IMG/VR virus record: IMGVR_UViG_3300032285_000166
Span: 1-35,244 of that record
Origin: a virus
Length of the DNA stretch: 35,244 nucleotides
Strand: one strand, 5' to 3'
A program made the translations under genes and the position numbers. Positions 988 through 30,858 of this stretch are shown here, in pieces; positions within the stretch are counted from its first letter, which is position 1, and each line of letters begins with the position of its first letter. Below the pieces are notes generated by a model. It was not told the origin of the DNA, did not search any database, and saw only the letters and a program-made list of their open reading frames with translations.

Positions 988-1812
988 ATGGCAAACGATT
1001 TAGTAACTCTTCTCGCCAACAACCCCGCACTTGTCCAGACCGGTCTGGATGAAGATACCCTTGCCGTATCGGGCGGCGGCGGTGCATCGCGTAGCAAACG
1101 CATCTCCATCAAAGGTGGTGTGTTCCGTCTGATGGCTGGCGGTAAAGAGATTGGTGCGATTGAAGATCGTCATATGAACGTGATCTTCGTGAAGATGGCG
1201 CACCAAGCGTCGCGCATGTACTATCAATCTGGGTATCAGGAAGGGCAGAAGATCAGCCCTATGTGTTGGTCTAGTGACTCCAACGCGCCCGACCCTGAAG
1301 TAAAATCTCCGATGGCATCGAAGTGCAGTGAGTGCGAGATGTCGGTCAAGGGATCTGGTCAGGGTGGTTTGGGTAGTGCGTGTCGCTTGTCGTGGCGCAC
1401 TGCTGTTGTTCTGCCTAACGATCCATCCGGGGATGTAATGCAGCTTGTCTTGCCAGCAACTTCTACCTTTGGGAAAGAAGACAACGGTAGGTTCCCGTTC
1501 CGTCCGTATGTTCAGCACTTGGCGTCGCACAATGTCTCCGCAGGGCGCATTGTGACCAAGATGGCGTTTGATACTAAATCGCCAACTCCGAAGGTAATGT
1601 TTTCGCCCGCTGGCGCAGTACCCGAGTCTGATCTTGAAGTGATTGCACGACAGGCCAAGAGTGCGGCGGCTGAAGCTGCGATTAAGATGAATGTTTACCA
1701 GCTTGACGAAGGTGAGGCCGAGGCTGAACCTCAGAAGCGTTCCGTTGCCAAACCCGTTGAAGTTCCTGAGAAGGACATCTCGGATGTGGTGAAGAAGTGG
1801 TCTAAGAAGTAA
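988..1812 (+). CDS. Phage protein with four-Cys cluster, possible ssDNA-binding protein
   Basis: This is a 274-residue protein starting at ATG 988. Four cysteines at about residues 93, 113, 116 and 132 (CW...KCSEC...SAC) form a plausible zinc site. They are followed by a beta-rich section (TAVVLPND, VMQLVLPAT) and a conserved-looking motif VTKMAFDTKSPTPKVMFSP. The N-terminus is Gly/Ser-rich, and the C-terminus is charged and likely flexible, ending in KKWSKK. I recall similar proteins in replication modules of other phages, between helicase and primase genes, usually unannotated. The single-stranded DNA-binding suggestion rests on this context and the beta-rich core with a zinc cluster; it is not demonstrated. 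The stop codon TAA overlaps the next ATG by one base (TAATG), implying coupled translation. Confidence 0.7.
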   Translation: MANDLVTLLANNPALVQTGLDEDTLAVSGGGGASRSKRISIKGGVFRLMAGGKEIGAIEDRHMNVIFVKMAHQASRMYYQSGYQEGQKISPMCWSSDSNAPDPEVKSPMASKCSECEMSVKGSGQGGLGSACRLSWRTAVVLPNDPSGDVMQLVLPATSTFGKEDNGRFPFRPYVQHLASHNVSAGRIVTKMAFDTKSPTPKVMFSPAGAVPESDLEVIARQAKSAAAEAAIKMNVYQLDEGEAEAEPQKRSVAKPVEVPEKDISDVVKKWSKK

Positions 1813-2135
1813 TGCCCAGAACGTACAGCGAACCCTTTCTGATTAAGCTGTTCAAGGCCAACCCCCATAAGCCGGGGGTGGCTTTGGCTCAGGCTTGCGT
1901 CAAGGCAAACCTACCAGCAAAATACATTGCTGACATTCTTGATGTGAGTCGGATGACGATCTTCAATTGGTTTAACGGGAAACAAATCCGAGAGAAGAAT
2001 ATCTTAAGGATCGAAACCCTAACGGACATTATTGAGAGTGACACGGCGAAAGGGATTCTCCCTGCACGTAATACGATGGAGGCTAAACTCTACCTAGAGG
2101 GGGTAGTAGGGAGGGAACTTTCTGACAAAAGATAG
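1812..2135 (+). CDS. Helix-turn-helix transcriptional regulator
   Basis: This 107-residue protein begins at ATG 1812 in a TAATG overlap with the preceding gene. Residues of about 20-65 form a Cro/CI-like helix-turn-helix: ALAQACVKANLPAKYIADIL leads into the recognition helix region DVSRMTIFNWFNGKQI. The pattern 'VSR.TI..W..G' is typical of the turn and second helix of XRE-type DNA-binding domains. No ligand-binding or protease domain is present, so this is a small stand-alone regulator. It is the last gene before the double hairpin at 2138-2189, so it probably ends this transcription unit and may control this promoter region or the late operon. Its target is unknown. Confidence 0.8.
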   Translation: MPRTYSEPFLIKLFKANPHKPGVALAQACVKANLPAKYIADILDVSRMTIFNWFNGKQIREKNILRIETLTDIIESDTAKGILPARNTMEAKLYLEGVVGRELSDKR

Positions 2136-2137
2136 CC

Positions 2138-2155
2138 ACGGGGGGCAACCCCCGT
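2138..2155 (+). promoter_or_regulatory. Perfect 7-bp hairpin with GCAA tetraloop
   Basis: ACGGGGG pairs with CCCCCGT around a GCAA loop, starting three bases after the stop codon of the HTH gene. There is no U-run directly after it, so on its own it is not a classical terminator. It may act together with the terminator 10 bases downstream, or protect the 3' end of the upstream mRNA. Confidence 0.65.
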
Positions 2156-2164
2156 TGTCCTAAC

Positions 2165-2189
2165 AAAGCGAGGGCGACCTCGCTTTTTT
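2165..2189 (+). terminator. Intrinsic (Rho-independent) terminator
   Basis: AAAGCGAGG pairs with CCTCGCTTT around a GCGA tetraloop, a 9-bp perfect stem ending in a run of six T (2184-2189). It follows the HTH gene and ends only 14 bases before the primase ATG at 2204. That leaves no room for a promoter between terminator and gene, so the primase must be reached by read-through or from a promoter inside or upstream of the hairpins. Confidence 0.87.
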
Positions 2190-2203
2190 CAACTCTGCGA
2201 GAC

Positions 2204-5038: not shown

Positions 5039-5216
5039 GTGGATCTTCCCGTTCATGGGGATGAGGGTTGGGGATAGTTTCTTTATCCCCACCCTGCGTG
5101 TATCGCAAATGATATACGCTATCGAGACTGCCTCCAAAAAGGAGGGAATGCGATTCAAGGTCTACCCATCAAGCAAAGACGGACACATGGGTGTCCGTGC
5201 TTGGCGCACAAGTTAG
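5010..5216 (+). CDS. Small phage protein of unknown function
   Basis: This gives 68 residues from a TTG start at 5010, supported by GGAGGA at 4999-5004 with 5-base spacing inside the end of the primase gene. The ATG at 5005 is in another frame and stops at once. The sequence shows PFMGMRVGDSFFIPTL near the start and GVRAWRTS at the end. Small phage proteins with a 'vGDSFF.P ... R.WR' layout are common beside replication genes (I believe a DUF7303-like family, not certain) and lack a known function. The gene contains two strong inverted repeats (5064-5095 and 5179-5198), and its stop codon overlaps that of the convergent large gene. Confidence 0.72.
   Translation: MTPDLIKEPEWIFPFMGMRVGDSFFIPTLRVSQMIYAIETASKKEGMRFKVYPSSKDGHMGVRAWRTS
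5064..5095. promoter_or_regulatory. Long inverted repeat (12 bp with one bulge) inside the last plus-strand gene
   Basis: AGGGT-GGGGATA (5064-5076, with T5069 bulged) pairs with TATCCCCACCCT (5084-5095) around a 7-base loop. The stem is long for coding DNA and can form on either strand. No T-run follows on either strand. It lies about 120 bp from the junction where the plus and minus modules meet. Confidence 0.55.
5179..5198. promoter_or_regulatory. Perfect 8-bp hairpin near the convergent gene junction
   Basis: ACGGACAC (5179-5186) pairs with GTGTCCGT (5191-5198) around the loop ATGG. It lies 15 bases before the overlapping stop codons at 5213-5216. There is no U-tract on either side, so a classical terminator call is not justified. 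It could block colliding or read-through transcription. Confidence 0.55.
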
Positions 5217-8200
5217 GGTTCTACCCCGTAGGCTTTGTAGGTCTCAACCAAATGATGTTTGATTAGATTCTGCTGCATATTAATCACTTTGATTAGCGCA
5301 TCTCGATCTCTTGGCTCAAACGCGTTATTGAGCCGAACCATTTTAGCTTGATGCCTCAATTCCCGTAGCTCTTGGTTCTTGTCGTAGTTATACATCTCTA
5401 CAAGAACTCGGTGCGTAGGGTGATTGAGATCATATTTTGCCGCCATCAGTGGGTCAGTATCGAACTGTTTGAGTTGCTTCTCAATATCTTGGATCTTCTT
5501 CTCGACCGCAGAATATTCACGGGAGTCTACGTTAGAGCGCGACCCGAAGAACGAACCGAACAATGGTAAATCAGTCTTTGGTTTGAAGTCCTTCGCACCA
5601 CTGACCATAAGAGCAACGTCAGTTCCAGTTTCAAAGAATTTGGCTATACCGTCTAAGTAACTATTAGATAAGAAGTACAAGGTGTTGGGGCTAATATCAA
5701 TATCGCCAACAGTTTGGTTTGCCATCCAACGGGCAGCTATCTTGTACATTTCTGGGATGTGATCCCCACCCGTATAGGCATCACCCATGCGCCGGTTTTG
5801 GTCGTTGTAAATCTCTTGTCCAAGACCATTTTTATTGATGATGAACTCAAACACTGGGCGTAGCACGCTAGGTGCAATCGAATCTAGAGCAAATGCCCCC
5901 GGCATTTCAGTAGGGGGCATCCGCGAAATTGGGATTGGCACAAACGAGTCCAACGAAATTTGAAGAGCTACGTTGGCTAGCGCGTCACCAAATGATTGTT
6001 TGCCAGCAACCGCTGCCGCCAACTGTGCTCCTGACGCAGCAAATGCGCCAAGTCCAAAGCCCCACGGCATCTGAAGCACTAACGGATCTTTCAGACCAAT
6101 TGCTTCGCTGAGAATCTTGGGGACATGGAACCGCGCGTAGCGAGTCCACTGCTGCATATTGTCCGTACCGACTGGGTTACGTCCCAAGTCATCGTCGTCA
6201 TCGGCAAACATGAACGCCATCGTGTATGCCAACGCGCCAAGCCCCATCAGGCTGGCGGTCATTATCTGAGCGTTCCCACGATTTTTGGCGTAGTTGGCTT
6301 TGAAGTTAGCCAGAGCAGTAGGGTTGTTGCGGATACTTTCTGGCAACCCTAACGCGGCGCGTTCTGTTGTACGGAACACCGGGGCAATTGCTTCCATCGC
6401 CCGAAGTGCACCTGTGGCAGATGGACGGAAGAACATGTACAAAGAACCTAACGCCTTACCCCAATCTCCAACCTGCTCAAAGTTGGCTAAGTTTTTGGCA
6501 TATGCCGCAGCTTTTGCTTTTGCTGCATCGCCTACATATCCGTTAGAAATAGCATCAGATTTGGCTACGCTGTATGCAGCAGCGCGACTAGCCAATTCAA
6601 ACATGTCGGTCCACGTATCGATGAACTTCTCTAACTGTTCTTTCTTTGCGATGATGCCCGACTTACCAATGTCTTTGTAAAGTTGCTCAAAGTTTGACTT
6701 GATGGTCAGTCCGTGAAGGTATGACACCATACCGCCTTCTTTGATGAACTCAACCATGTTGGCGATAAACGGATCGGAGTTAGCTAAACCCCTGAGAGCT
6801 TGCTGACTTCTAGCGTCTGTCTTGTCATATAAAATAGCAACCTGCATTGCTTTATACAGGCCACCGTTAGCTACAAGACTAGACATCGCGCCTAGATACT
6901 CGGCTGCTTTCTTCGGCCCCATGTCTGCACCAATTGCACCTGCGTTGGTCAACCCGTCGCGCACAAAGTTCATCGGCGCAAAGTTGTAGTTGTACCGAGT
7001 GTGCATCGCTCCAATTTTACTGGTCAGCCAGTTAGCCGCAGTAATAAATGGGCTTGTTGTTTCAAACGTCCGGCGAATTGATTCACGGATTTTTGGGTCG
7101 TCAATAATAAGAACTTGAACGCTACCATTTGGATTGAAATGGAAGACAGTCCGTTCACGGGGGAGCTTATCAATAAAGTCCTTTTTGTTTCGGTCTTCAA
7201 ATGGAACTTCAGCCCACACTCTTCCGTGAAGAAGCTTTTGCTCGATAGCATTTTTGATAGCAAGCGTTACATCTTTACGGCCAGCACGTAGCGAGGCTTG
7301 CGTGGCATATGCCAGAGCGTGAAGCACAGGGTTATCAGCAGCAGTCTCTCGACCCTCAAATGGACGTTCAATCTGTTGGAATTCTCTACCGCGCTTCATG
7401 GTCTGGTAGTCCAGCATGTCATCGATTTCGGTATGCGCGCTTTTGCCTTTGAACGAAACGTAATTTTGGAAGTTATAGAAGTTCTTCCGATTCTCGACCG
7501 GCTTTGACCAATAGTTGGATTGTTTATCTAGCTCAATAGTTTTCTCATTAAGCCGTCGCATATCGTTAATGATTCTATCCACCAACGCTTTGTTGGGATC
7601 ATTTAGATATTGGCTAGTAACATTACTAATACTTGCTGGATCAAGGTTAGTCATGTTGTAGGTTTGATGAGCAGGATCAATCTGCGTCATGCCATCTGGG
7701 CTTCGCCCGTTAGCTACTACATTCCTTGCATTTACGAGTGGTTTACCGTTTGGATCACGCATGATCGTGACTTGACCAAATGGATCTACTTGCGTTTGGA
7801 ACACGATACTCTCTAACGTAGACCGCAACTGCCGGGCTTGTGCCTCTGTCATGTTTTGGTTTCTGTTGAGTTGGTTGACTATGGCGTCACGAACATCAGC
7901 CGCTGTAGCTGGAATTCCACTAACCATAAACGGTTTGTTGTTAGCATCGTTGGCAAGCGGAACCGACAATAAGAACTTCACCATGCTACGTTCGGGGTTA
8001 TGCAAAACCTCCAAGATTTTGTGTAGACGGCTAAGTGTTTTGTCCACATCAAGCCTCATAGCTTCTGCATACTCTTGCACCGAAGCTCGGAGATCAGTAG
8101 CAATCGGATCGACTTGACTGTTGTAGATAGACCTACCACGTGCTGGCGCAAGTGTCAGCAGTGTGTAGATAGAATTGATTGATGGGCCAGAAAAATTAAT

Positions 8201-11200
8201 TAACTTGGCGCGTTCGTGCATAACCTCCCATGACTTAATCGCATAGCGGTTACTTGCAAACTTGGTGGCAAGTGTCTTAAACCCTTCAGTCGTTGTAAAC
8301 AGACTTTTGATCGCCTTGCCTAAAGGAACTTTTTCTTCTTTGAACCGCGTATAGTTCGGATCAGCGTGGTCATTAAGATCAATCGTACGCGCGGGAGTTG
8401 CTTGGTTTGGCTGTCCCGGCGGAGCAGTGGCCTCTAATCTACCTAATTCGATTGGTCCTTGTTGCGGCATAGCGATCTTCGAGAAGATCTCAGAAACTTC
8501 CACTAGGAAATTGATCTGACCGTTTGCTTGTTTGTCAGCGTTGTACCCAACTGCTTTAGCAATTGCCCTACTAAGACTTGTCCAAAGAGTTCTGGCGGTA
8601 GGAAGCAGGCTTTCATAGACAAGAGTCTCGGTCCACTCTCTCCACTTGCCTATTATTTTTCCGGGTTCTTTGCCAAGTTTATCTTGAATAGCACCGGCAA
8701 CGATGTTCGACGCCTTCATTGCACCCATAGCAGACGGACTGATTCTGTTCAGTTCCCGCTGGAATTGAGGCTCAGTCATAGCATAAGCTATGAATTCATA
8801 GACATTCTTGAACGCTGTTGGGTAGCTTTTGCCAAGGTAATCTTTGGCCTCTTCCATAAGTTGCTCAAGCTGGAAGCAAGCAACAACTTGATCTTCAGTC
8901 AGTTGTGAACGCAGTTGGTTACCGTGAGAATACTTGTAGAGGACTTGTACAGTTGCCGCATGGGTAAGCTCATGTAACACCGTAGACATCGTTAACCCGT
9001 TTGGAGCCAAACGGATTTTATTGGTAAGCGGATCATATGAACCGTACGCGTCTGTTTCTCTGCCTTTGTTGTCCCTGATTACGTCCACGATCTCAAGCGT
9101 GGTGCTGAGTTTCATCGCAAACAAAGCTTGGGCCAGCCCTTTGTGGACTAGTGCAGTAAGATTCCCACCCGTTGGCGCTGACCTAAAAGCTTGCAAAAGC
9201 TTTTGCAATTCGTTGTCTTTTATCAGCTTGATTGCTTCAGCACTAAGCGGCCTATCTTCAGCAACTTTAGAGAACGGTACATACGGCTCCGCCGTATCCC
9301 GCTGACGTTGGAATTTATCTTGAGCGGCGATACCCGCACCAATCATTTCAGATACACGTTTAGCGTGATCAATTAGTGCTTTATCTTTTTCTTTTTTGGT
9401 AAGTTTATTATTCTCATTAATCAGCCGCTCTGCAACTTTAGCAAACGCGTAATCTTGCTGAATACCCGCATCGTTTGTATCCCCTTTTTCACTTAGGGCT
9501 TGTAGATACGTTAGTTTTGTAGCGTGCGATAACTTATTCCACGAAGGAAATTCAAATTTAAAATGTTTGGCTACCGCTTCTCGGTTGTATTCATAATTGC
9601 TAGTAACCCTTTCACGACGTTGGTCGCGCTCTTTGCGTGCTTCCTGTTCTTTACGTTCTTGTTCGTTTTTAGGTTTAATGTACCCTTCCTCGCGCCCTTG
9701 TGTTAGAGCGCGATAGGCTTGCAGTTTTTTACCAGCTTCCCTGTGTTCTGGCCGACTACCATATTTAATCAACGAAAAATATAGGTCTTTTTCAGCGGCG
9801 GAAACTTTTGACCAAGGTGACAACTGAGACAACCTAGGTCCGTGGCGCTCTAATGCTACCTCTGCTTCAGCAAGAGCGGAAGAAGTATCGGCCTCTTCGT
9901 TGTCAGCTTTCTCTTGTTCCTTTTCTAATTCTTGTATACGGCTTTCGTTATTTTGTTCACGGGCTGTTTTTAGCTCAGCTTCGATCTGTTCTGCTTTTTC
10001 TTTCGCCGCATTAAATTTTTCTTTTGCCTCTTCTTGGGCTATTGCTAATTCAACGCGTTCAGCATTCTTTGCTTTTGCTTCCGCCGCAATCTCAGCATAA
10101 GTCTGGTTATACTGATTTTCCATTTCATCAGTATCAAACGAATACTTTAGCGGACCCCTTGGTTTACCTTTTTTGTCTAGGTACGAAGCCTCTAGATCAC
10201 GTTGACGTTGCTCTTCTTGTTTGCGCTCTTCTTCCCGCTCAAGACTTAAAGCGTAATCATTTGCCGCGTCGCGTTGTTCTTGCCTAGACCGAAATGGTCC
10301 AATTGGTTCGGCAAAAAAATTATCGTCTGCTGTTAGAGGATCGCTACGTGTTATTTCAAAAGCATCTTCAAGTTCATGTAAATCGGCCAGCGCGTCTTTA
10401 AGTTTTGCCGTGTTTATTTTTGAAGGGTCTTTAGCGTAAGCATACGCTATTTTATTGTATATGTCCCTTTGAGTAGCCACCAAGTCACGGTCTGTTTTGG
10501 CTAAATCTTGTAAACCTATATCACCCGCAACAAGTGGTACTACTGGAGTGGGTTGAGTTCCTTCTCCAACATTAGTTGCTGTAGTGCTTGGTTCAACATT
10601 GCCCACTCCGCTTGTGTCAACGGGGGCAACTCCTTCGGTGGCGGCTCCTGTATCGGGCTGTGTAGCCACGCTAGGGCTTTCTCCAACTGCGGGCGTGACA
10701 GTTCCTGTAGAGACATTTGGTGCTCCTTGTTGTGCAAGATGTTGTTTGATTGCAGCCACTGCGCGTTCATTGAACCCTTTACCGCTTTCAATAGTTAGCC
10801 CAAAAAGCCTTTCAAATTGTTTTAAAGGCAACGCATTTGCTTTGCCACCAGTAGAAGTTAGATCTTCAAGATACTTAGTTGCGGCAGCAATTGGGTTAGC
10901 CTCAATGTCTACCTTACTAGGAATTGGCGCATTTTGAAGTTTAGGCTTAGCTTCCGCAGGGGGTGTTGGGGGAGGAGTCTCGGTTTGAGCAGCGGGTGTT
11001 TCCGGCGTAACTGCAACAGCACCCGAAGGTGCGTTCTGAGGATTTAATAAGCTATCAAGCTCTGCTTGCTTAGCTGCTTCTTTAGCTGCTTCTTCAGCCG
11101 CTGCTTTGGCTTCTTTTTTATTAGCCGGGGGTGCAGGGGGAGGCGTAACCTCAGTAGTAACGGGGGCCGTAGCAGGAGGTGGAGCTTGCTGTTCTCTTTC

Positions 11201-12286
11201 AGCTTGTTCTTTCGCGGCTTTGGCAATTTGGTTACTGAAGTGGTTTCTAACCCCACCAACTGTACCGGGGACCACTGCCATACCCATCGAAGCGGCGGCG
11301 GTATTTACGTACTCTTTTAGTGCCTCTGCATCAGCCAAAGACAAGTTTGCGCCAAAGCGCTCTGCCACCGTTTGGATTTCTTCTGGAAGAATTTCTTTGC
11401 CGCCCGTGACGGCAATACGTTTAGCGACTTCAGCAATTAGTGAGTCGGCGGCTTTCTCACCAACTTTGAGCGCATTAACCCCAATCTTGTTAACAAAATA
11501 ATCTGCAACCGAATGGACAATGGCAGCAGGAACGAGGCGTCCAAGGTTGATGTCTTCAGGGGTCTGGTTATTACGTTGTGCTTCCTGCACCGCCCGACTT
11601 GTGGTTTCGCCAGCGCCATGTAGACCAGCTTGACCCACCATACCAGCGGTAGTACCCAGAGCGAGAAGTTCTTTTTTGGCTTCTTTAAGAATAGTCTTTT
11701 CAGCTTCTTCTTTGGACATTTTTTCGGCAGCTTCAAGAATGCCTTTTTTGACCAAAGTTTTGGCTACTGCACCAGAGATTGCACCGGGAAGCGCGCCAAC
11801 ACCTGCACCAGTAGCCGCACCAACACCTGCACCAACTGCCATTGTGCCAAGCGTTTCGGCTAAGTTAGCCACACCAGATCCAATCTGATACGGGAGCCAG
11901 TCAGTTATAAGAGGAACGATCCCTTCCTTAAGGGCTTCCATAAATTCGTCAGTCTTACGAACTACTGTTTTTGATTCTGCGTTGTGTAGGTTCTCAACCC
12001 CGCGCTTGATTAAGTCACTGCCGGTTTCTTCAGCGCCAACCTTTTGAGCAAGACGCCCCGCTAGGACTTGAGCGCCGCCAAAAGTCTCCTGTAGCTGGGG
12101 TACATAATTTTTGATACCCCGCATAAAATCACTGGAGTTATCCTCCGGTGCAAGTACACGCGGTCCCTGCGGTTCTGGAGTAGGGGGCTTTTTAGTGTCA
12201 AATAAAAACGCACTAAAATCTTGACCAGCAGGCGTAGTATCAGGGGCGGGGCCAAACAACTCCGAACTAAAATCGCGTCCTTGCAT
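5213..12286 (-). CDS. Giant polyvalent-type ejection protein with metallopeptidase motif
   Basis: This 2357-residue protein is most likely carried in the virion and injected with the DNA. A hydrophobic Gly/Ala segment (about 135-175) follows a short N-terminus and could interact with membranes. About 355-640 is Ala/Pro/Thr-rich linker, and 690-990 is highly charged and coiled-coil. At 1105-1109 the motif HELTH, with a downstream YEFIAYAM whose Glu is about residue 1164, has the pattern of a zinc metallopeptidase (HExxH plus a distal Glu), as in the MPTase domains of phage polyvalent proteins. Residues from about 1750 (NFVRD at 1773) to the C-terminus resemble the large polyvalent associated domain LPD38, including AKNLANFEQ and a hydrophobic FRPSATGALRAME section. 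The start ATG 12286 has AAGGAC upstream. It is the last gene of the late operon. Confidence 0.85.
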   Translation of the reverse strand: MQGRDFSSELFGPAPDTTPAGQDFSAFLFDTKKPPTPEPQGPRVLAPEDNSSDFMRGIKNYVPQLQETFGGAQVLAGRLAQKVGAEETGSDLIKRGVENLHNAESKTVVRKTDEFMEALKEGIVPLITDWLPYQIGSGVANLAETLGTMAVGAGVGAATGAGVGALPGAISGAVAKTLVKKGILEAAEKMSKEEAEKTILKEAKKELLALGTTAGMVGQAGLHGAGETTSRAVQEAQRNNQTPEDINLGRLVPAAIVHSVADYFVNKIGVNALKVGEKAADSLIAEVAKRIAVTGGKEILPEEIQTVAERFGANLSLADAEALKEYVNTAAASMGMAVVPGTVGGVRNHFSNQIAKAAKEQAEREQQAPPPATAPVTTEVTPPPAPPANKKEAKAAAEEAAKEAAKQAELDSLLNPQNAPSGAVAVTPETPAAQTETPPPTPPAEAKPKLQNAPIPSKVDIEANPIAAATKYLEDLTSTGGKANALPLKQFERLFGLTIESGKGFNERAVAAIKQHLAQQGAPNVSTGTVTPAVGESPSVATQPDTGAATEGVAPVDTSGVGNVEPSTTATNVGEGTQPTPVVPLVAGDIGLQDLAKTDRDLVATQRDIYNKIAYAYAKDPSKINTAKLKDALADLHELEDAFEITRSDPLTADDNFFAEPIGPFRSRQEQRDAANDYALSLEREEERKQEEQRQRDLEASYLDKKGKPRGPLKYSFDTDEMENQYNQTYAEIAAEAKAKNAERVELAIAQEEAKEKFNAAKEKAEQIEAELKTAREQNNESRIQELEKEQEKADNEEADTSSALAEAEVALERHGPRLSQLSPWSKVSAAEKDLYFSLIKYGSRPEHREAGKKLQAYRALTQGREEGYIKPKNEQERKEQEARKERDQRRERVTSNYEYNREAVAKHFKFEFPSWNKLSHATKLTYLQALSEKGDTNDAGIQQDYAFAKVAERLINENNKLTKKEKDKALIDHAKRVSEMIGAGIAAQDKFQRQRDTAEPYVPFSKVAEDRPLSAEAIKLIKDNELQKLLQAFRSAPTGGNLTALVHKGLAQALFAMKLSTTLEIVDVIRDNKGRETDAYGSYDPLTNKIRLAPNGLTMSTVLHELTHAATVQVLYKYSHGNQLRSQLTEDQVVACFQLEQLMEEAKDYLGKSYPTAFKNVYEFIAYAMTEPQFQRELNRISPSAMGAMKASNIVAGAIQDKLGKEPGKIIGKWREWTETLVYESLLPTARTLWTSLSRAIAKAVGYNADKQANGQINFLVEVSEIFSKIAMPQQGPIELGRLEATAPPGQPNQATPARTIDLNDHADPNYTRFKEEKVPLGKAIKSLFTTTEGFKTLATKFASNRYAIKSWEVMHERAKLINFSGPSINSIYTLLTLAPARGRSIYNSQVDPIATDLRASVQEYAEAMRLDVDKTLSRLHKILEVLHNPERSMVKFLLSVPLANDANNKPFMVSGIPATAADVRDAIVNQLNRNQNMTEAQARQLRSTLESIVFQTQVDPFGQVTIMRDPNGKPLVNARNVVANGRSPDGMTQIDPAHQTYNMTNLDPASISNVTSQYLNDPNKALVDRIINDMRRLNEKTIELDKQSNYWSKPVENRKNFYNFQNYVSFKGKSAHTEIDDMLDYQTMKRGREFQQIERPFEGRETAADNPVLHALAYATQASLRAGRKDVTLAIKNAIEQKLLHGRVWAEVPFEDRNKKDFIDKLPRERTVFHFNPNGSVQVLIIDDPKIRESIRRTFETTSPFITAANWLTSKIGAMHTRYNYNFAPMNFVRDGLTNAGAIGADMGPKKAAEYLGAMSSLVANGGLYKAMQVAILYDKTDARSQQALRGLANSDPFIANMVEFIKEGGMVSYLHGLTIKSNFEQLYKDIGKSGIIAKKEQLEKFIDTWTDMFELASRAAAYSVAKSDAISNGYVGDAAKAKAAAYAKNLANFEQVGDWGKALGSLYMFFRPSATGALRAMEAIAPVFRTTERAALGLPESIRNNPTALANFKANYAKNRGNAQIMTASLMGLGALAYTMAFMFADDDDDLGRNPVGTDNMQQWTRYARFHVPKILSEAIGLKDPLVLQMPWGFGLGAFAASGAQLAAAVAGKQSFGDALANVALQISLDSFVPIPISRMPPTEMPGAFALDSIAPSVLRPVFEFIINKNGLGQEIYNDQNRRMGDAYTGGDHIPEMYKIAARWMANQTVGDIDISPNTLYFLSNSYLDGIAKFFETGTDVALMVSGAKDFKPKTDLPLFGSFFGSRSNVDSREYSAVEKKIQDIEKQLKQFDTDPLMAAKYDLNHPTHRVLVEMYNYDKNQELRELRHQAKMVRLNNAFEPRDRDALIKVINMQQNLIKHHLVETYKAYGVEP

Positions 12287-12294: not shown

Positions 12295-15200
12295 TTATTT
12301 GATTGCGATGCCTCTAGCTTTTGCCGCTGCTTCTATTTCCGCCACTGATTTACCAGATGCTTTAGCCGTCGCTTCAACGTCTGCCCTAGACATTGTTGTA
12401 GGAGCAGCGGGAGGGGGCGGCGAAGTATTTGCACCTCCTACCGTCATACCAGTAGATTTAGTGTACAGAGCTTTGGCTGTGTTATACATTTCTTGAGCTT
12501 GTTTATGCTGGGCAACAGCATCTCTGTCATATTGCGCCAATTGCCCTTCATAAGTTTCTACGTTCTTTTGTTTTTCTTTATTGTTAGGATCATTTTGGAG
12601 CAGCAACCGCGCTTGGTCTAGTTTTGCTTTACCAGCTTGGTAGTCTTTGCCGCTTCTAACAGACTCAATATATTTTTCAGTAGCCAGAACAGCGTTATAC
12701 GAATTGGTAAGCGCAGTTTGAATCCTTGAAAAATTAGTCGCGTCTTTTTGCGCTGCGGCAACTTCTTTATGAGCTGCGGATACAAGCTCTTGCCCTCTGA
12801 GGTGCATTTGGGCGTTATAGACAGACGTATCCATCTGCCCTTGGCCTTGCGCGTTAGAAGTGGCAATTTGAGCAAGAGTCTGTCCCCGTGTATCAGCATG
12901 ACGCCCAAGGACTTCATTGAGCTTCATACCGCGTTCAGCAAGACTAGCTTTTTCTCTGCCAGCTTCTTCCCAGTTACCTTTTTTCTCAAGCCTTTCAGTT
13001 TGACCAAGATCGTAGATAAGTTTGTCGGTTTCACGTAAAACCTTCTTCCGTTCCTTCTCATCTTCAATCATGATAGGAATGGATTTCTTGAGAGCAGTCA
13101 TACCCGCTACAAGCGTAGCACCGGGAGTTGAACCCCAGCTTGCAAAGAACTCGGCAAGGCGAAGATTCTTTTGACGTTTGGCGTCGTCGTCCAAATTGGC
13201 ACGCTCCGCCATGATTTTACTGCGGTAATCGAGCAGTTCTTGATTTGGACCTAAACCAATAGCTTCTCGATCTTTTTGTTGGCGTTCATAAATTGCTTTC
13301 TGTGCTTCAGGAGGTTTAGCAGCTTCTGCTCGAAGCGTTGCAAACATTGGATCTTCAGGGGGCGCAACCGCATTTACGTATCCGGGCATTTTAATGCCAG
13401 CAGGGGCAGGGGCAACTGAAGGACGAACAACAGGCGCAGCGGCTGGAGCAGCTTGGGTAGTAACGGGAGGCGCGGCAGGGGCGGGGCCAGCAGTAGGTAC
13501 AGCCGTTATAGCAGAAGGATTAGTTAAAGCAGCGGGGGGTGGAGCAAGTTCCGCAGGGGCAGGGGCGGGAGGAGCCGGTGGTTTTGTTCCATAAGACTCC
13601 GCATGGCGATCCGCCATCATCCTGAATGGATTAATTTTATTTAGAGCTTCGCCCGGATTGTATAGCCAGCTAGGTGCGCCACCATATTTTTTGAAGTTTT
13701 CGTCTTCGCCTTTGACTAGACTCTGATTGTTTTCGTCAGTAGATTCAGCAAACGCAAGGATACCGCCTCGCGCCATGCGAGGAACTGGCATCTTCTCTTG
13801 GATCAGACGCGCAGCCATCTGTTTAATTGATGGACTATTAGATTCTTTGGCGTACTTCTTGAGATCGTCCACATCCATCTTCGAGAGCGTGCTTTCAATC
13901 TCGCCGCCCACATCGTAGGACATGATGCCGCCTTTTGCGGCGTGGATAACCCCACCTTCTTTTCTGGGCGTAGGCGTACCACCAAACGCACCGTTCAGCG
14001 CACCGTATGCACCGACTGCACCAATACCCTGAGTGAGAGCATTAGGCGCGGCCTGATACATATTGGTGGTCGAAGCTTGCATAGGCAGACCACGCAGCAT
14101 GTTTGACATCGTACCCAATTGCATCAGCGGATACTGTTGTGCGTTGGCGTAGTCTTGCAGCGCTTGATTAAGAATCATTTGTTGCAGTTGCTGCTGCTGA
14201 CCGCCGTACTGATTCTGTAGTCCGTAAATTCCTTCTTGAGCCGTTAACTGTTGTTGTCCTAGTCCAAATAATTGTTGCGCCGCAGCAAGTTGCTGAGCGT
14301 TCATTTGTTGACCGTAATTAGCACCAAATTGTCTAGATTGTTCAATGGCTTGTTGGTTAGCCAGCATCGCCTGTTGGTTTGCTAGCTGAGCTTGCATGTT
14401 TTGCCCAGCGCCAAGTTGTTGCACTCCAAGATTAGCTTGAAGATTCTGCAACCCAGTGTTGTAAGCCATCTGCTGATTAGCAAAATTGGCTGCTTGGTTT
14501 TGTTGAGCGTTAAATTGCCGGTTTGCTTGACTTAACTGACCTTGGTTTAAACCATACTGACCAAGAATTCCTTGATTAGCCAAGGCGATCTGATTAGCTG
14601 CTTGTTGGTTAGCCGCTGCCGCTGCTTGATTAAATTGCCCTTGTTGCAGGCCATACTGACCTTGCAACGCTTGATTAGCCATCGCAGTCTGTTGGCGATT
14701 AGCGACGTTACCCATCGCCATCTGCTGATTCATGGTTCCCTGTTGAAGACCGTACTGACCTTCCAAAGCCTGATTAGCCAACGCCGCTTGCTGATTCATC
14801 GACCCTTGTTGCAGCCCGTACTGACCTTGCAACGCTTGATTAGCCAATGCGGTTTGCTGATTCATAGTCCCCTGTTGAAGACCGTACTGACCTTCCAAAG
14901 CCTGATTAGCTAATACCGCTTGTTGACGATTAGCAAGATTAGCCATAGCCATCTGCTGATTCATCGTACCTTGCTGCAACCCAAACTGATTCAATGCGCT
15001 TTGGTTATTTATATTTGCCGCCTGCCGAAATCCTGCATTAGCCAATCTGACCGCTTGATCCATTTGACCTTGCGTCAGACCGTACTGCCCTTGCAATCCT
15101 TGGTTGGCAAGCTGTTGTTGCTGCAATAATTGAGCGTTCTGTAGAGCAGTGTTGTACTGCTGGCCTTGGTTAAATTGCCCAGTTTGCATCCCAGCGGCTT

Positions 15201-16467
15201 GGTTCAACTGCTGCGCGGTCAAGCCGGTCTGTGCGCCAAGACCTTGAGTTTGGAGCAGGGAACTTAGATTCTGAACACCCGTCTGCTGCTGCACCGCTTG
15301 GTTAGCCATCGCCGCTTGAAGGGCTGCTTGCTGTTCAGTATTGAATTGTCCTTGCGCAGCTTGGAATGCGGCTTGTGAACCTTGAGCTTGAATATCCCCT
15401 TTCTGTGTTGCTAGATTGCGCGCAGCTTCAGCGTTTTCAATAGCTTGGCGTGATCCACCAAAAGCACCGGATTGAGCAAACTGCGCGCCACGCCTAGTCG
15501 AGGCAATATCTGCTTGGCGTTGTGCTTCGCGCTGTTGAATACCCACCACACTTTGCATGTATGGGGACATATACGCATCAGTTGCTCCGGGCTGCGTAAA
15601 CGAACTAGTACCAACATTACCTGCCCCCTGCATCTGGAAACGCTCAAGAGGAAGTGTATTAACACGCTCAAACCCAATGTTTGTTGGCTTGTAGTCAAGC
15701 TGATGCCCTGTATATAAAGGGACTTCTCCAAGTTGAGTAAATTCAGCTTGTGCCGCTTGCATCATGGCGGCGTTTTTAAGTTGCGCCGCCGTACCTGTTT
15801 GTCCGTAGGCAGTTGGACTAGTACTTAACTGCGCTGCGTAAGCAGTAGGAGAAGTACTTAACTGCGCTGCGTAGGCAGTTGGACTAGTACTTAACTGTGC
15901 TGCTGTACCTGTTTGAAATTCTCCTAACGGTGCCCCATTAAGTTGCGCAGCACGCATTCTTTCAGCCGCAGATATTGTAGGAGCATTCCCTAAATAAGTT
16001 TGTTGTGCGGTTTGCCCCCGAACATTTTGGGGCTGGTTCATTTGGTAATAATTTACATCAGGAGCGTAAGCTTGCCCCATCGTAAATTGACCGGGATTAT
16101 ATCCAGCATTAGCAGCGCGCTGCATTGCGTCAGCGGTATATTCGCTGGCAGCATTAAATTGCCCCGGCATTTGCAGATTGTAGATACCATTCTGCGCCAT
16201 CTGCTGCATCGGCGTGAACCCAGCGACTGCTGCGCTAGGATCATAGGAAGTCATATTCCCATTTGCGTCGTACGTCCCACCGTACGCTTGATAAGGTCTA
16301 AGAGGTCCTAGTTCAGTCTCACCCGTAGTAGGATTTGTAGTGGTATTAAACAATTGATGCTGAGTTGCGCCCAGCATGTTCTCTACATATCCACGAGCAT
16401 ATTCGGGGATATTGGTATTCGTTACCGTCGAGCTAGTTTGACCGCCGCCACCGCCGCCCTTACCCAT
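12295..16467 (-). CDS. Large Gln-rich repeat virion protein (probable internal/ejection protein)
   Basis: This 1390-residue protein starts at ATG 16467 with GGAG upstream and overlaps the previous gene by 8 bases. After a Gly tract, the N-terminus reads IPEYARGYVENMLGATQ, a pattern I recall from phage structural proteins. Residues about 189-221 hold three copies of AAQLSTSPTAY. A GAFGGSRQAIENAEAARNLAT segment follows, then 19 consecutive 11-residue Gln/Ala/Asn-rich units (about 460-668), best read as a long helical rod. Further on are Gly-Gly motifs (AAKGGIMSY, MARGGILAF), a Pro/Ala linker (about 955-1030), a charged helical part and a C-terminal SVAEIEAAAKARGIAI. Its place between a GNAT-like protein and the giant polyvalent protein suggests a DNA-ejection role. 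No enzymatic motif is visible. Confidence 0.78.
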   Translation of the reverse strand: MGKGGGGGGQTSSTVTNTNIPEYARGYVENMLGATQHQLFNTTTNPTTGETELGPLRPYQAYGGTYDANGNMTSYDPSAAVAGFTPMQQMAQNGIYNLQMPGQFNAASEYTADAMQRAANAGYNPGQFTMGQAYAPDVNYYQMNQPQNVRGQTAQQTYLGNAPTISAAERMRAAQLNGAPLGEFQTGTAAQLSTSPTAYAAQLSTSPTAYAAQLSTSPTAYGQTGTAAQLKNAAMMQAAQAEFTQLGEVPLYTGHQLDYKPTNIGFERVNTLPLERFQMQGAGNVGTSSFTQPGATDAYMSPYMQSVVGIQQREAQRQADIASTRRGAQFAQSGAFGGSRQAIENAEAARNLATQKGDIQAQGSQAAFQAAQGQFNTEQQAALQAAMANQAVQQQTGVQNLSSLLQTQGLGAQTGLTAQQLNQAAGMQTGQFNQGQQYNTALQNAQLLQQQQLANQGLQGQYGLTQGQMDQAVRLANAGFRQAANINNQSALNQFGLQQGTMNQQMAMANLANRQQAVLANQALEGQYGLQQGTMNQQTALANQALQGQYGLQQGSMNQQAALANQALEGQYGLQQGTMNQQMAMGNVANRQQTAMANQALQGQYGLQQGQFNQAAAAANQQAANQIALANQGILGQYGLNQGQLSQANRQFNAQQNQAANFANQQMAYNTGLQNLQANLGVQQLGAGQNMQAQLANQQAMLANQQAIEQSRQFGANYGQQMNAQQLAAAQQLFGLGQQQLTAQEGIYGLQNQYGGQQQQLQQMILNQALQDYANAQQYPLMQLGTMSNMLRGLPMQASTTNMYQAAPNALTQGIGAVGAYGALNGAFGGTPTPRKEGGVIHAAKGGIMSYDVGGEIESTLSKMDVDDLKKYAKESNSPSIKQMAARLIQEKMPVPRMARGGILAFAESTDENNQSLVKGEDENFKKYGGAPSWLYNPGEALNKINPFRMMADRHAESYGTKPPAPPAPAPAELAPPPAALTNPSAITAVPTAGPAPAAPPVTTQAAPAAAPVVRPSVAPAPAGIKMPGYVNAVAPPEDPMFATLRAEAAKPPEAQKAIYERQQKDREAIGLGPNQELLDYRSKIMAERANLDDDAKRQKNLRLAEFFASWGSTPGATLVAGMTALKKSIPIMIEDEKERKKVLRETDKLIYDLGQTERLEKKGNWEEAGREKASLAERGMKLNEVLGRHADTRGQTLAQIATSNAQGQGQMDTSVYNAQMHLRGQELVSAAHKEVAAAQKDATNFSRIQTALTNSYNAVLATEKYIESVRSGKDYQAGKAKLDQARLLLQNDPNNKEKQKNVETYEGQLAQYDRDAVAQHKQAQEMYNTAKALYTKSTGMTVGGANTSPPPPAAPTTMSRADVEATAKASGKSVAEIEAAAKARGIAIK
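14464..15090 (-). repeat. Nineteen tandem 33-bp (11-residue) repeat units
   Basis: Counting from 15090 downwards, every 33 bases gives one 11-residue unit, with alternating types such as GQYGLQQGTMN and QQTALANQALQ, and a third type QQMAMANLANR. The register never slips over 19 units. An 11-residue (hendecad) period equals three helical turns, which predicts a right-handed or straight alpha-helical coiled coil. DNA identity between some 66-bp pairs is high, suggesting growth by unit duplication. Confidence 0.88.
15805..15903 (-). repeat. Three tandem 33-bp repeats encoding AAQLSTSPTAY
   Basis: The units are 15805-15837, 15838-15870 and 15871-15903. Units 1 and 3 differ at one base and unit 2 differs from unit 1 at four. 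All changes are silent, including a serine codon switched between the AGY and TCN boxes. Confidence 0.9.
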
Positions 16468-16891
16468 GATTTACTCCTTCGAGGGGCAGTTCAAATGTTG
16501 CCCATAGGCTTTTATGCCCGTCGTTTTGAAATATTTTAGCCCAACCGCGCCGAGCGGTGGCTTCGATCCCGTCACATCCCATGTCTTTTGCATACCGACG
16601 TAGCAGATCAAGCATAGGATCTTTCCATTTACTCAATTCCATGCCACCACAAAAAGTCATAGACAAAACTTTGCGTTTTGGGTAGTTCATGAAGTTTGTG
16701 ACCACTGCGCCTTTGATCTCACTACCTTCAAACGCAACCCATAGATCATGTTCGTAATCTACTATTGCGGTGTGAATGTCATCTACAGTGTATCTACCAT
16801 AAGTATATCGCGCCGCCCGATCCAGAAATGGCCCAACAGTTTCCCAGCAAGTGTGGATTAACTCTTTGGGAACCATTGAAACTTGAATCAT
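16460..16891 (-). CDS. GNAT-fold acetyltransferase-like phage protein
   Basis: This 143-residue protein has the pattern of a degenerate GNAT (N-acetyltransferase) domain: an N-terminal helix, a central beta stretch DLWVAFEGSEIKGAVVTNF, and the C-terminal half GIEATARRGWAKIFQNDGHKS, where GNAT proteins place the final strands. Phages of the T7 group and many environmental phages carry such a protein beside the internal virion proteins (T7 gp13 is a comparison). I cannot confirm an acetyl-CoA binding motif (R/Q-x-x-G-x-G/A), so catalysis is uncertain and a structural or assembly role is as likely. The gene overlaps both neighbours (ATGA at 16888-16891; 8 bases at 16460-16467), so its product should be made with the ejection proteins. 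Confidence 0.68.
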   Translation of the reverse strand: MIQVSMVPKELIHTCWETVGPFLDRAARYTYGRYTVDDIHTAIVDYEHDLWVAFEGSEIKGAVVTNFMNYPKRKVLSMTFCGGMELSKWKDPMLDLLRRYAKDMGCDGIEATARRGWAKIFQNDGHKSLWATFELPLEGVNHG

Positions 16892-18714
16892 CGTGGTATG
16901 TACTTATGGGGATTTATTTGTTTACCTTGTTTGGGATTGCCGGTACGCTCTTGCCGCACTTTGGTCATCATCTGGTGAAGCACTTTAGCCCCGGCTTCCG
17001 TTGATCCGTTCCCAAGATGGGAGACCACATCAGCAGGGATAACAAATTCTCCGTCAGCCAAACGAGCCGGTTGTCGTCCATTGATGGTAGCCGGAATATT
17101 ATCCGACATTCCATCCCCCGGCCCTTTTAGCAAACGTGGGTTTCCACCAGCGGCATATCCTCCAAGGTCACTAACGCCCATGATACCGCCCTTTGCCGCT
17201 TCTTGGTATTGGGTAGCGTCAGATTTAGCTCCGGGTGGGCTAAGATTTAACTGCCCCATCGGTGTCGGAGCGGGGAACGATGGCAAAGACACGTAAGCAC
17301 GTTTGTTAGTTTTGGCTTGGCGGACTCGCGCCGCAGAGTAAGGGTCAAGGCTACGAGTATCAGGATCGGTGTCGTGATAGATACCCGCATCGGTTGGATG
17401 GGATGAAGGCATCTTGGGCGTTTCGCCTTCCATCATCTTGGTGTAGTAGTCCAGAGTGCTCGACAAGTTACCCGTTGAACCACCACCAGCAAATTTTTGT
17501 GGTTGGTTTTGGTTTTGGCTAACATCGGCTGGTCCACCTACGTTAATAGGGGCCGACTTAGCTTCAGGCTTTAGTTGCTGAAATGACTGCATCAGATCAG
17601 GAGTGCCCGCCTGTTGAGTCATAAAAGAATTTGTTGAACCTTGTGGGTTTACTGGAGCGTTGACTTGAGTACTGTTTTGACCAAAAAACCCGGTGTTTGC
17701 CCCTGAGTTTTCGTTGCCAAAAGCATAGTTAGGAGTAGATTGCGTGCTGTTTTGATCGCCACCAAAATCGACAGGTACGTTCAACGTCAGGTTCCCACTG
17801 CCTGTAACGCCGCCTTGAGCCATCTGCATGATGCCGCCTTCGGCATATCGGGGGGCGTATTGATACTGGGATGGGTTGGCAATCGTTGCTTGATAATTTG
17901 GCGATAGCTTGTATTTGCTCAACGGACCAGAGTACGGAGCACTGTTGAAGTTACCGCGATTTGGATTAAGCAAACCCAAAGCACTCGCTCCTAAATACGC
18001 ACCAGCCATTGTGGTCTTAGGGTGCGCGTCAGCCCAAGACATTGCTTTGTCTAGGCCATTCATGAACGCAGACTTAGGCTCAGCCCCACCTTCTCCGGGT
18101 AATGTATACATCCCTCCGGGGGTTTTCGCCGTATAACCTTCTACTCCAGAAGCAGGAGGGCCACCAAACAAATTATTAAGGAACCCACCACCCCCTTGCC
18201 CCACTTTTAATTCTGGGTAAGGACCATATTGCGCAAGGCCAGCGGTAGGGGCTGGTCCAGCAAAAGGCGGGGCAGTATTAATGCCAGCGGGAGCAAAAGG
18301 TGGCGGTGCAACAGAGGGCGCAACGGGAGGCGCGGCGGGCATTGGTGGAGGAGGCGGTGCGCCAAGAGATGTTGGATCAAAAGACGGATTAAACGAACCG
18401 GGAACACCTGTTACCGGATTAACTGAACTATTAATAATGTTTGGAGCAGTAACCGGAGAAGTTACAGCGCCTTGTTGTAGTGCGTTTATTCCAGCGCCAG
18501 CACCCGGACCACCTGCGGCAGCGGATTGGGCCATAGCTGCTGCTTCTGCTTGAGTTAGTCCGGCAGGAATAGCAGTAAGTCCTGATGCTCCAGCACCAAC
18601 ACCAGACAATTCTCCAGCAGTTAGAGCAGCGGTAGCAAAATCGGCAGCGGATGCTGCGGCGGCTTCTTCACCTCCCGCTTCAGCGGCAATAAGGAAAATA
18701 TCCATCATTGGCAT
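16888..18714 (-). CDS. Ala/Gly/Pro-rich virion protein with conserved C-terminal phage domain
   Basis: This 608-residue protein probably starts at ATG 18714, with GAGG 7 bases upstream; Met residues 3 and 4 are alternatives. The first 100 residues are Ala-rich and partly hydrophobic, followed by Pro-rich linkers. Gly-Gly motifs recur (YAEGGIMQMAQGG, AKGGIMGVSDLGGYAAGG). The C-terminal 100 residues contain GPGDGMSDNIPATINGRQPA and DGEFVIPADVVSHLGNGST, then a helix with VLHQMMTKVRQERTG. I recognise this end as a conserved module of phage late proteins, seen in many environmental phages without an assigned activity. The gene is placed directly before the GNAT-like gene and after the cupin gene, with short overlaps. 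A role in ejection or tail assembly is inferred only from position. Confidence 0.75.
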   Translation of the reverse strand: MPMMDIFLIAAEAGGEEAAAASAADFATAALTAGELSGVGAGASGLTAIPAGLTQAEAAAMAQSAAAGGPGAGAGINALQQGAVTSPVTAPNIINSSVNPVTGVPGSFNPSFDPTSLGAPPPPPMPAAPPVAPSVAPPPFAPAGINTAPPFAGPAPTAGLAQYGPYPELKVGQGGGGFLNNLFGGPPASGVEGYTAKTPGGMYTLPGEGGAEPKSAFMNGLDKAMSWADAHPKTTMAGAYLGASALGLLNPNRGNFNSAPYSGPLSKYKLSPNYQATIANPSQYQYAPRYAEGGIMQMAQGGVTGSGNLTLNVPVDFGGDQNSTQSTPNYAFGNENSGANTGFFGQNSTQVNAPVNPQGSTNSFMTQQAGTPDLMQSFQQLKPEAKSAPINVGGPADVSQNQNQPQKFAGGGSTGNLSSTLDYYTKMMEGETPKMPSSHPTDAGIYHDTDPDTRSLDPYSAARVRQAKTNKRAYVSLPSFPAPTPMGQLNLSPPGAKSDATQYQEAAKGGIMGVSDLGGYAAGGNPRLLKGPGDGMSDNIPATINGRQPARLADGEFVIPADVVSHLGNGSTEAGAKVLHQMMTKVRQERTGNPKQGKQINPHKYIPR

Positions 18715-19034: not shown

Positions 19035-19324
19035 CCAACTTTCCAGTTAGTCCCATCCGAATAGACAGGCACTTTATTTGACCCGCCACCGGTTACCGTG
19101 GAGCCAAATGTAGACACAGAAGCGTCAATAACAAACCCTCTGGCACCCAAACCGGATACAGCCGCGCTTAATAATTGGGCTACCGTCACGGGAGTACTTG
19201 GTTGATTAACTGCGTTATCAATTTGATTGAAGTACAGACGGAGAATGTTATTAAGCTGGTTGATGTACTGTGGGTCGTACTCAACCGTTGAGTTGGGTAG
19301 GCGCGGGGATACAATATTACTCAT
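19031..19324 (-). CDS. Small virion-associated protein of unknown function
   Basis: This encodes 97 residues. The first half holds a helical stretch YDPQYINQLNNILRLYFNQID; the second half is Gly/Ser/Val-rich and ends in KVPVYSDGTNWKVG. Phage proteins with this layout (helical N-terminus, 'SDGTNW' type end) are frequent in tail gene clusters, and the ending is often seen at the tips of fibre-type proteins. No function can be named. It is coupled by ATGA overlaps to both neighbours, the nozzle-like protein gene upstream and the cupin gene downstream. Confidence 0.68.
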   Translation of the reverse strand: MSNIVSPRLPNSTVEYDPQYINQLNNILRLYFNQIDNAVNQPSTPVTVAQLLSAAVSGLGARGFVIDASVSTFGSTVTGGGSNKVPVYSDGTNWKVG

Positions 19325-29771: not shown

Positions 29772-30208
29772 TATACGATCCTGATGATTGCTGATGTGTT
29801 GGTCACTGCTGGGAATTGTACAGTGAACGTAGTGGTTGAAGTTTTGTCCGCCCCAAAATCCAGCACACAGATTGTTGGGTTTGTGGCCCCGTCTGCCAGA
29901 TAAATTAATGCCCCTCGTGCAGTAACCGCAGTAGACCAAACTGCGTTATTAAATGACCAGTACGCAGTCGTGCCGGTAGCCCCCACAGTAGGGATCTGAC
30001 TAATAACAAGGACTTGCCCCCCAGCGGTATACCCCGAGGCAGAAACCTCTCCGGTAGTAGTGTAACTAAGGGTGGTAGCATCTAGCGAAGCTGCGTTGGT
30101 GTACAACGCAATCTTGAAGACCTGTGTCGTCCCTGTGTTGAAATTAAACGTCCCACTAGGAAGCCCAGTCTTGAACGTATTGGTTGTCCAGTTGCCCGTG
30201 AATGCCAT
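29771..30208 (-). CDS. Beta-rich virion protein, paralogue of the 163-residue protein
   Basis: This 145-residue protein opens with a Phe/Gly/Thr-rich stretch (FTGNWTTNTFKTGLPSGTFN) followed by the shared core TQVFKIALYTNAASL and TGEVSASGYTAGG. It ends in a Val/Ile/Phe-rich tail (FTVQFPAVTNTSAIIRIV), similar to its paralogue at 29085-29576. It shares an ATGA overlap with the upstream adaptor-like gene. A tail or capsid-surface role is likely but not proven. Confidence 0.78.
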   Translation of the reverse strand: MAFTGNWTTNTFKTGLPSGTFNFNTGTTQVFKIALYTNAASLDATTLSYTTTGEVSASGYTAGGQVLVISQIPTVGATGTTAYWSFNNAVWSTAVTARGALIYLADGATNPTICVLDFGADKTSTTTFTVQFPAVTNTSAIIRIV

Positions 30209-30858
30209 CAGGTCACCGTTTGACGATATTGACCAGAACGATATGCGTCCTGTCTTTCGAGGCCATCGCCACCACGTTTAGCCATTGCCATAGCTTCTTT
30301 ATATTTTACTTCGTACAGCGCCACCATGTCGGATTCGCCTTTCATATAAGTGTAGGCTTCAACAAGAGTGCCGTAAAAAAGAACAATGTCGTAATTGTCC
30401 CCAAGCCAAGTATTGCCAGCCGTGACAATCGACTCTGGGTAAAAGAAGTAATGCAACTCCATTGTGTACACAGCGTCTGGAGTCGGGCCAAGGATAAACG
30501 TCAGTTCATTTGCATTGCCGGATTGTGGACCAAATAAAGCGTAGTACTTAGGGAGCGCTGTATCCGTAGGGCTGGGATATGCTTCGCGGATAAAGTTAAC
30601 ATCTTTGTTTAGCAAGTACGTGTAGTTGCCGCTTGCTTCAATAACTGCCAACGAATACGAAGACAAAAAATCAGCAGGGCAAGAGAGGTATTTGTTTGCT
30701 GGACTGGTTACCCCGGTCACGTTTTTACGCAATGAGGGGAACTGTACCGTGTTGTAAATGCGCTGTTCCGCCTGCTCAATGAACGTATTCATATCCGCAG
30801 TGGGGAAAGTGTTCTCCGTATAGTCAGAGACCGCAGTTACAAGCGCGGTATAGTTCAT
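30208..30858 (-). CDS. Head-tail adaptor-like protein (first of two)
   Basis: This 216-residue protein has a helical start (YTALVTAVSDYTENTFPTAD; FIEQAEQRIYNTVQFPSLRK) and a beta/helix C-terminal half (FYGTLVEAYTYMKGES, EVKYKEAMAMAKRG) in the style of short-tailed phage adaptor proteins (T7 gp11/P22 gp4 type, or SU10-like adaptors). These bind the portal ring and link it to the nozzle. The identification rests on recalled resemblance and helix layout. It is coupled to neighbours by ATGA overlaps at 30208 and 30855. Confidence 0.62.
   Translation of the reverse strand: MNYTALVTAVSDYTENTFPTADMNTFIEQAEQRIYNTVQFPSLRKNVTGVTSPANKYLSCPADFLSSYSLAVIEASGNYTYLLNKDVNFIREAYPSPTDTALPKYYALFGPQSGNANELTFILGPTPDAVYTMELHYFFYPESIVTAGNTWLGDNYDIVLFYGTLVEAYTYMKGESDMVALYEVKYKEAMAMAKRGGDGLERQDAYRSGQYRQTVT

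What the first reader, a model, noticed from the sequence alone, without database searches (positions are those of the whole stretch)
5213..12286. Metallopeptidase motif embedded in a 2357-residue ejection-type protein
HELTH (residues 1105-1109) and a distal Glu in YEFIAYAM (about 1164) form a zinc-protease signature in the middle of a giant protein with a hydrophobic N-terminal segment and an LPD38-like C-terminus. An injected protease could act on a host envelope or defence protein, or process virion proteins. The protein keeps intact catalytic residues, so activity may be conserved.
Basis: partly seen in the sequence, partly recalled or inferred. Interest (0 to 1): 0.72.

Follow-up and report, generated by a model that had tools for sequence, protein, structure and literature searches.

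The report
Swappable protease cassette in phage injection protein
A bacterial virus carries a giant protein, probably packed in its particle and injected into the host, whose middle holds a zinc-dependent protein-cutting enzyme; related viruses exchange this enzyme for very different versions while keeping the rest of the protein and the catalytic residues, as if they change what it cuts.

Summary
The 2357-residue minus-strand protein has one HExxH (HELTH, 1105-1109; 0.035 expected), a downstream Glu (E1164) and LPD38 (2042-2238, E=3.6e-16). Residues 1043-1199 fold confidently as a zincin (pLDDT 91.8). Among 77 diverse homologues only four columns are invariant: H1105, E1106, H1109, E1164. Relatives include solved virion-internal proteins: N4 virion RNA polymerase, PhiM1 gp48 and PDB 9sfn. 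Zincins in phage polyvalent proteins were described in 2017, so the domain itself is not new. New here is how it evolves. The protease lies in a central cassette (about 560-1310) that is replaced between otherwise near-identical proteins (flanks 81-96%, protease 31-41%; AU p<0.01 in four groups), yet catalysis is never lost in 61 complete family members. The window's own protein differs from L003 this way. In more distant cultured Vibrio phages with flanks of at least 93% identity, the slot holds the protease (1.205.O), unrelated sequence (252E42.2, K249) or nothing (D171). Most likely it is an injected ejection protein carrying an active zinc protease used as exchangeable cargo against host targets. 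Self-processing remains the main rival. No activity, zinc binding or virion location was measured.

The parts
5213..12286 (-). 2357-aa polyvalent/ejection-type protein, last gene of the minus-strand virion module
   Evidence: ORF; homologous giant proteins in over 100 viral contigs
11237..12286 (-). N-terminal module (residues 1-350), conserved between chassis
   Evidence: 85% id to L003, 94% to L002; dN/dS 0.057 against L002
10607..11236 (-). Pro/Ala/Thr-rich linker (residues 351-560), flanks the variable cassette
   Evidence: 41% P+A+T over residues 360-600; dN/dS 0.367 over 351-600
8357..10606 (-). central variable cassette (residues about 561-1310), replaced as a block between related phages
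   Evidence: identity to L003 falls to about 22-54% from residue 551 to 1300 while flanks stay mostly 66-94%; GC 0.43 over residues 561-1000 against 0.46-0.51 in the other parts of the gene
8690..9160 (-). gluzincin-type zinc metallopeptidase domain (residues 1043-1199)
   Evidence: AlphaFold2 pLDDT 91.8, pTM 0.84; profile hits to solved phage virion proteins; dN/dS 0.029
8960..8974 (-). HELTH (residues 1105-1109): two predicted Zn-binding His and the general-base Glu
   Evidence: 100% conserved in 77 non-redundant homologues
8795..8797 (-). E1164 (in YEFIAYAM): predicted third Zn ligand
   Evidence: 100% conserved in 77 non-redundant homologues; helix 120-129 of the model carries it
5216..8356 (-). 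C-terminal module (residues 1311-2357), conserved chassis, shared at about 24% identity with DarB-like giant proteins of Vibrio podoviruses
5573..6163 (-). LPD38 domain (residues 2042-2238)
   Evidence: PF18857 E=3.6e-16
12295..18714 (-). three genes directly upstream (1390, 143 and 608 aa), conserved in order with the giant gene in L002 and L003
19321..21726 (-). virion structural protein (801 aa)
   Evidence: phrog_3287 E=2e-58
30208..30858 (-). SU10-type adaptor protein, marks a podovirus-like virion module
   Evidence: PF24175 E=2.8e-21

Best explanation
The protein is a virion-packaged ejection (polyvalent) protein of a short-tailed phage. Its N-terminal and LPD38-bearing C-terminal modules form a conserved packaging and ejection chassis. 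Between them, in a recombinationally exchangeable slot, sits a catalytically intact gluzincin-type zinc metallopeptidase: H1105 and H1109 bind Zn, E1106 is the base, E1164 is the third ligand. It is most likely carried into the host with the DNA and cleaves one or a few host proteins early in infection (defence, envelope or takeover targets). Changing targets would explain why the cassette is repeatedly swapped while catalysis is always kept. Shown here: architecture, fold prediction, conservation, exchange, loss of the slot in cultured relatives. Inferred: virion location, injection, activity, host target.
For: Fold and catalytic tetrad. Retention of one HExxH in 61/61 complete family members found through the C-terminal module alone, not through the protease. 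Purifying selection strongest on the protease (dN/dS 0.029). Exchange inside the window's family: win-L003 N 85% / protease 41% / C 81%; L020-L051 95/31/96; L094-L096 93/37 over 52 aa/86; L023-L092 89/39/94; 33 of 81 close pairs at 67% or less and 48 at 80% or more, none between. C-terminal clades with 100% support are rejected by protease sequences (AU p 0.0004, 3e-5, 0.006, 0.003). Cultured Vibrio phages with flanks of 93-98% identity hold protease, unrelated sequence or nothing in the slot, and 252E42.2 has no such domain anywhere in its 59-kb genome. Homologous domains occur in proteins solved as internal virion or ejection proteins. An LPD38-bearing DarB-like protein of podovirus JC1 was found in virions by mass spectrometry (PMC9144972).
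Against: No activity, zinc, virion or injection data for this phage. In the window's own family the protease is never absent, which also fits an obligatory role. The swapped block (about 560-1310) includes flanking linkers, so a self-cleavage site could travel with the protease. For the window's own clade the protease tree does not reject common descent with L003; there the evidence is the distance (1.96 against 0.22 changes per site), not topology. Foldseek matches to solved zincins are individually weak (E about 0.1).
Confidence: 0.55

Rival explanations
1. Self-processing: the metallopeptidase cuts its own polyprotein, in the capsid or after injection, to release the N- and C-terminal modules as separate working parts. 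This is the reading favoured for polyvalent-protein MPTases by Iyer et al. 2017.
For: Published proposal, with phage P1 DdrB processing as precedent (PMC5512222). The cassette is flanked by Pro/Ala/Thr-rich linkers suited to cleavage. The protease is always present in the window's family.
Against: N4 virion RNAP, with a homologous domain, is packaged unprocessed (PMC5512222). Cultured Vibrio phages with the same chassis (93-98% identical) lack the protease, so processing is not essential for that chassis. Repeated exchange for very different proteases needs the cut site to be exchanged each time.
Confidence: 0.27
2. Virion maturation protease: it cleaves other virion proteins during assembly.
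For: The gene lies at the end of the virion module.
Against: Exchange of the protease between phages whose surrounding genes are alike (84-91% nucleotide identity over several kb), and viable relatives without it, are not expected of a maturation protease.
Confidence: 0.07
3. Penetration enzyme: it locally degrades envelope or periplasmic proteins to let the ejectosome form, a general rather than target-specific role.
For: Homologous domains sit in ejectosome proteins such as PhiM1 gp48 and N4 vRNAP.
Against: It does not explain repeated exchange or the empty slot in D171.
Confidence: 0.09
4. Structural domain with a frozen, unused active site.
For: The N4 structure paper describes only a motif in this domain, no activity (PMC12633501).
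Against: Exactly the four catalytic/ligand residues are invariant across 77 sequences as low as 19-20% identical to the window's.
Confidence: 0.02

Closest known systems
Zincin-like MPTase domains of phage polyvalent proteins (Iyer et al. 2017, PMC5512222)
   Same: HExxH helix plus Glu in the last conserved helix, three-stranded sheet, giant phage protein with LPD38
   Different: No match to the Pfam MPTase-PolyVal model PF18818. Whether it is one of the 12 clades of that paper could not be tested. The passages read do not mention cassette exchange or empty slots.
C1 domain of N4 virion RNA polymerase (PMC12633501; PDB 9pnr, 11gp)
   Same: Homologous protease domain (hhalign E=8.5e-13; BLAST E=3.5e-4); giant last gene of the virion module
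   Different: No RNA polymerase here; no detectable homology of the C-terminal 1100 residues
Ejectosome / internal virion proteins: PhiM1 gp48 (PDB 8vb2), 9sfn chain G
   Same: Same HExxH...E domain by profile (E=2e-7 and 5e-16), inside the virion
   Different: Half the size, no match outside the protease region in the profile searches made
DarB-like giant proteins of podoviruses (Bcep22/JC1, Vibrio 252E42.2)
   Same: LPD38 C-terminal module; JC1 gp69 found in virions (PMC9144972)
   Different: Carry methyltransferase and helicase regions; the protease is optional cargo there but fixed in the window's family
Minigluzincins (projannalysin, selecase) and IrrE/PprI
   Same: Zincin core, best non-phage matches
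   Different: Weak similarity, free-standing cellular proteins

Membership tests
Zincin/gluzincin metallopeptidase (clan MA) | HExxH on a helix | tested here: met
   Residues 1105-1109; helix 58-78 of the model; 77/77 conserved
Zincin/gluzincin metallopeptidase (clan MA) | Third ligand Glu on a following helix | tested here: met
   E1164 on helix 120-129 of the model; 77/77 conserved
Zincin/gluzincin metallopeptidase (clan MA) | Ligands clustered in three dimensions around Zn | tested here: inconclusive
   Foldseek top hits are zincins but weak, coordinates not readable
Zincin/gluzincin metallopeptidase (clan MA) | Zinc-dependent proteolysis | not testable with these tools
   needs purified protein
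Pfam PF18818 MPTase-PolyVal | Score above the curated cut-off of 27.5 bits | tested here: not met
   No match even at E<=10 in the window or five relatives
Polyvalent protein (Iyer et al. 2017) | Giant multidomain phage protein with LPD and effector domains | tested here: met
   LPD38 plus metallopeptidase in 2357 aa
Ejection/internal virion protein | Present in virions and delivered to the host | not testable with these tools
   Only by homology and by virion mass spectrometry of an LPD38 protein of phage JC1
N4-type virion RNA polymerase | vRNAP catalytic domains | tested here: not met
   No vRNAP Pfam or PHROG match in P0001, four Pfam vRNAP domains in N4 gp50

The most novel reading that the evidence does not exclude
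The ejection protein is a delivery chassis with a dedicated cargo slot. In this family the slot is locked to zinc proteases whose specificity is diversified by recombination, much as tail-fibre tips are, so that each phage lineage injects a protease matched to its host's proteins, possibly its defence proteins.
Probability: 0.4. Interest if true: 0.78.

Novelty: new variant of a known kind. Interest (0 to 1): 0.58.

Why it matters
What the metallopeptidases in phage ejection proteins do, including the one in N4 virion RNA polymerase, appears to be open: the 2017 survey lists self-processing and host attack side by side. The exchange pattern, and pairs of cultured Vibrio phages that differ mainly in this slot within one gene, turn the question into a direct experiment. 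If cargo is exchanged between host-specific proteases, many phages would carry an injected, fast-changing weapon.

Tried and rejected
Profile-profile comparison of the C-terminal 1100 residues with the N4 C2 domain: nothing beyond the protease (a first run in global mode was not usable). C-terminal profile against solved structures: only chance hits. Whole-protein phmmer against solved structures: nothing. First structure model with 17 sequences: pLDDT 73, poor PDB matches; replaced by a trimmed domain with 77 sequences. The idea that the gene is an N4 virion RNA polymerase without its polymerase was dropped: gene order is alike but the neighbouring proteins show no similarity. Fast evolution instead of exchange was rejected by the two-peaked identities and the AU tests. 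Assembly chimeras were considered unlikely: both cassette types recur in several independent contigs and in cultured phages. Genome collection: one relative only. Pfam on the alternative slot contents: no family. Literature searches for virion metalloproteases or cassette exchange found no prior report.

Full report
Observation. The ORF at 5213-12286 lies on the minus strand and encodes 2357 residues. HELTH occupies 1105-1109 and is the only HExxH; YEFIAYAM starts at 1163, so the Glu is E1164. Composition predicts 0.035 HExxH per such protein. LPD38 matches 2042-2238, E=3.6e-16. The N-terminus is Gly/Ala-rich but has no convincing transmembrane helix. The window is a whole IMG/VR record, a probable fragment: the two nearest relatives are contigs of about 64.6 kb.

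Protease domain. Trimmed to residues 1043-1199 with 77 non-redundant homologues, AlphaFold2 gives pLDDT 91.8 and pTM 0.84: N-terminal helix, three strands, a helix with HExxH, and a later helix with E1164. This is the order described for polyvalent MPTases (PMC5512222). The only invariant columns are H1105, E1106, H1109 and E1164. A larger set of 116 sequences gives the same four; there the distal Glu of L094 and L100 is uncertain because of long inserts, and both were left out of the 77. Foldseek against the PDB returns mostly zincins at the top (IrrE/PprI, selecase, jannalysin, lethal-factor type), each at weak E of about 0.1 or more. Profile search against solved sequences is stronger: 9sfn chain G 'internal virion protein' E=5e-16, PhiM1 gp48 ejection protein E=2e-7, N4 virion RNA polymerase E=5e-6, projannalysin E=0.003. 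The viral structure library gives internal core proteins and virion RNA polymerases. The Pfam MPTase-PolyVal model does not match.

Conservation. To avoid picking homologues by the motif itself, I searched with the C-terminal module only. All 61 complete proteins longer than 1500 residues carry exactly one HExxH at the equivalent place. One shorter ORF, L133, lacks it because the gene is split on that contig. Between the window and L002, dN/dS is 0.029 in the protease, the lowest of any part (N module 0.057, C module 0.097, linker 0.367).

Exchange. Along the alignment of the window protein with L003, identity is mostly 82-92% over residues 51-350, about 22-54% over 551-1300, and mostly 66-94% afterwards. 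The same borders appear in L020-L051, L023-L092 and L094-L096. Among 81 pairs with C-terminal identity of at least 75%, protease identity is either 67% or less (33 pairs) or 80% or more (48 pairs), with none between. Clades with 100% support in the C-terminal tree are broken in the protease tree; holding them together is rejected with AU p of 0.0004, 3e-5, 0.006 and 0.003. For the window's own clade the topology is undecided; the distance is 1.96 changes per site in the protease against 0.22 in the C module. Surrounding DNA of L020 and L051 is 86-91% identical over the long aligned blocks on both sides, so these are closely related phages. Every exchanged version keeps the four residues (L094 uncertain for the distal Glu).

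Natural absence. More distant cultured Vibrio phages share the C module at about 24% identity. Phage 1.205.O (3130 aa) and phage 252E42.2 (3066 aa) are 96% identical over residues 1-939 and 1192-3130 of the former. The slot between holds the protease in the first and an unrelated stretch of about 183 aa in the second. D171 has an empty slot and K249 a larger replacement, with flanks of 93-98% identity. 252E42.2 has no such protease anywhere in its genome. The protein in these phages is DarB-like with a methyltransferase region.

Context. The giant gene closes a minus-strand virion module with an SU10-type adaptor, virion structural protein, holin and endolysin, and its upstream genes are conserved in L002 and L003. 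An LPD38-bearing DarB-like protein of podovirus JC1 was found in virions by mass spectrometry (PMC9144972).

Conclusion. Domain type, catalytic residues and chassis are well supported. That the protein is packaged and injected is inferred from homologues. Among mechanisms, cargo acting on host targets best explains exchange with retained catalysis plus viable phages without it. Self-processing stays possible because linkers travel with the cassette and because the window's family never loses the protease. The domain is of a known kind; its exchange in a fixed slot is the new element.

Noticed in passing
L039 and L133 (same contig, IMGVR_UViG_3300020811_000058): The giant gene is split: the protease lies in a 331-aa ORF and the C module in a separate 1068-aa ORF. 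Sequencing error or a real two-gene version.
   Followed up: no
L113, L122, L127, L128, L156, L162, L166: A protease subtype with HExxHY(x)2DH(x)2DN in the same chassis, with extra conserved Asp/His beside the motif.
   Followed up: no
L168, giant protein residues about 945-1060: The slot of this Vibrio-like chassis holds a segment that resembles an ADP-ribosyltransferase by eye (GGFYAT...AKGYA); Pfam gave no match.
   Followed up: partly
window 19321-21726 and 27577-29067: Two virion-module proteins share runs of the repeat SGVSASGxVGxV.
   Followed up: no
window 33787-34164 and 34393-34845: Two neighbouring small basic proteins end in nearly the same motif (RADGC..(K/R)GKTKG.FV), a likely duplication.
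   Followed up: no
window 2204-5038: Primase/helicase-like gene (DUF927) on the plus strand, converging on the giant gene.
   Followed up: no
hits H144-H150: Short-tailed coliphages, Stx-converting ones among them, carry a giant protein that matches the end of the C module; records were not fetched.
   Followed up: no
window 18705-19034: Cupin-like small protein (PF07883 below cut-off, E=0.00056) inside the virion module.
   Followed up: no
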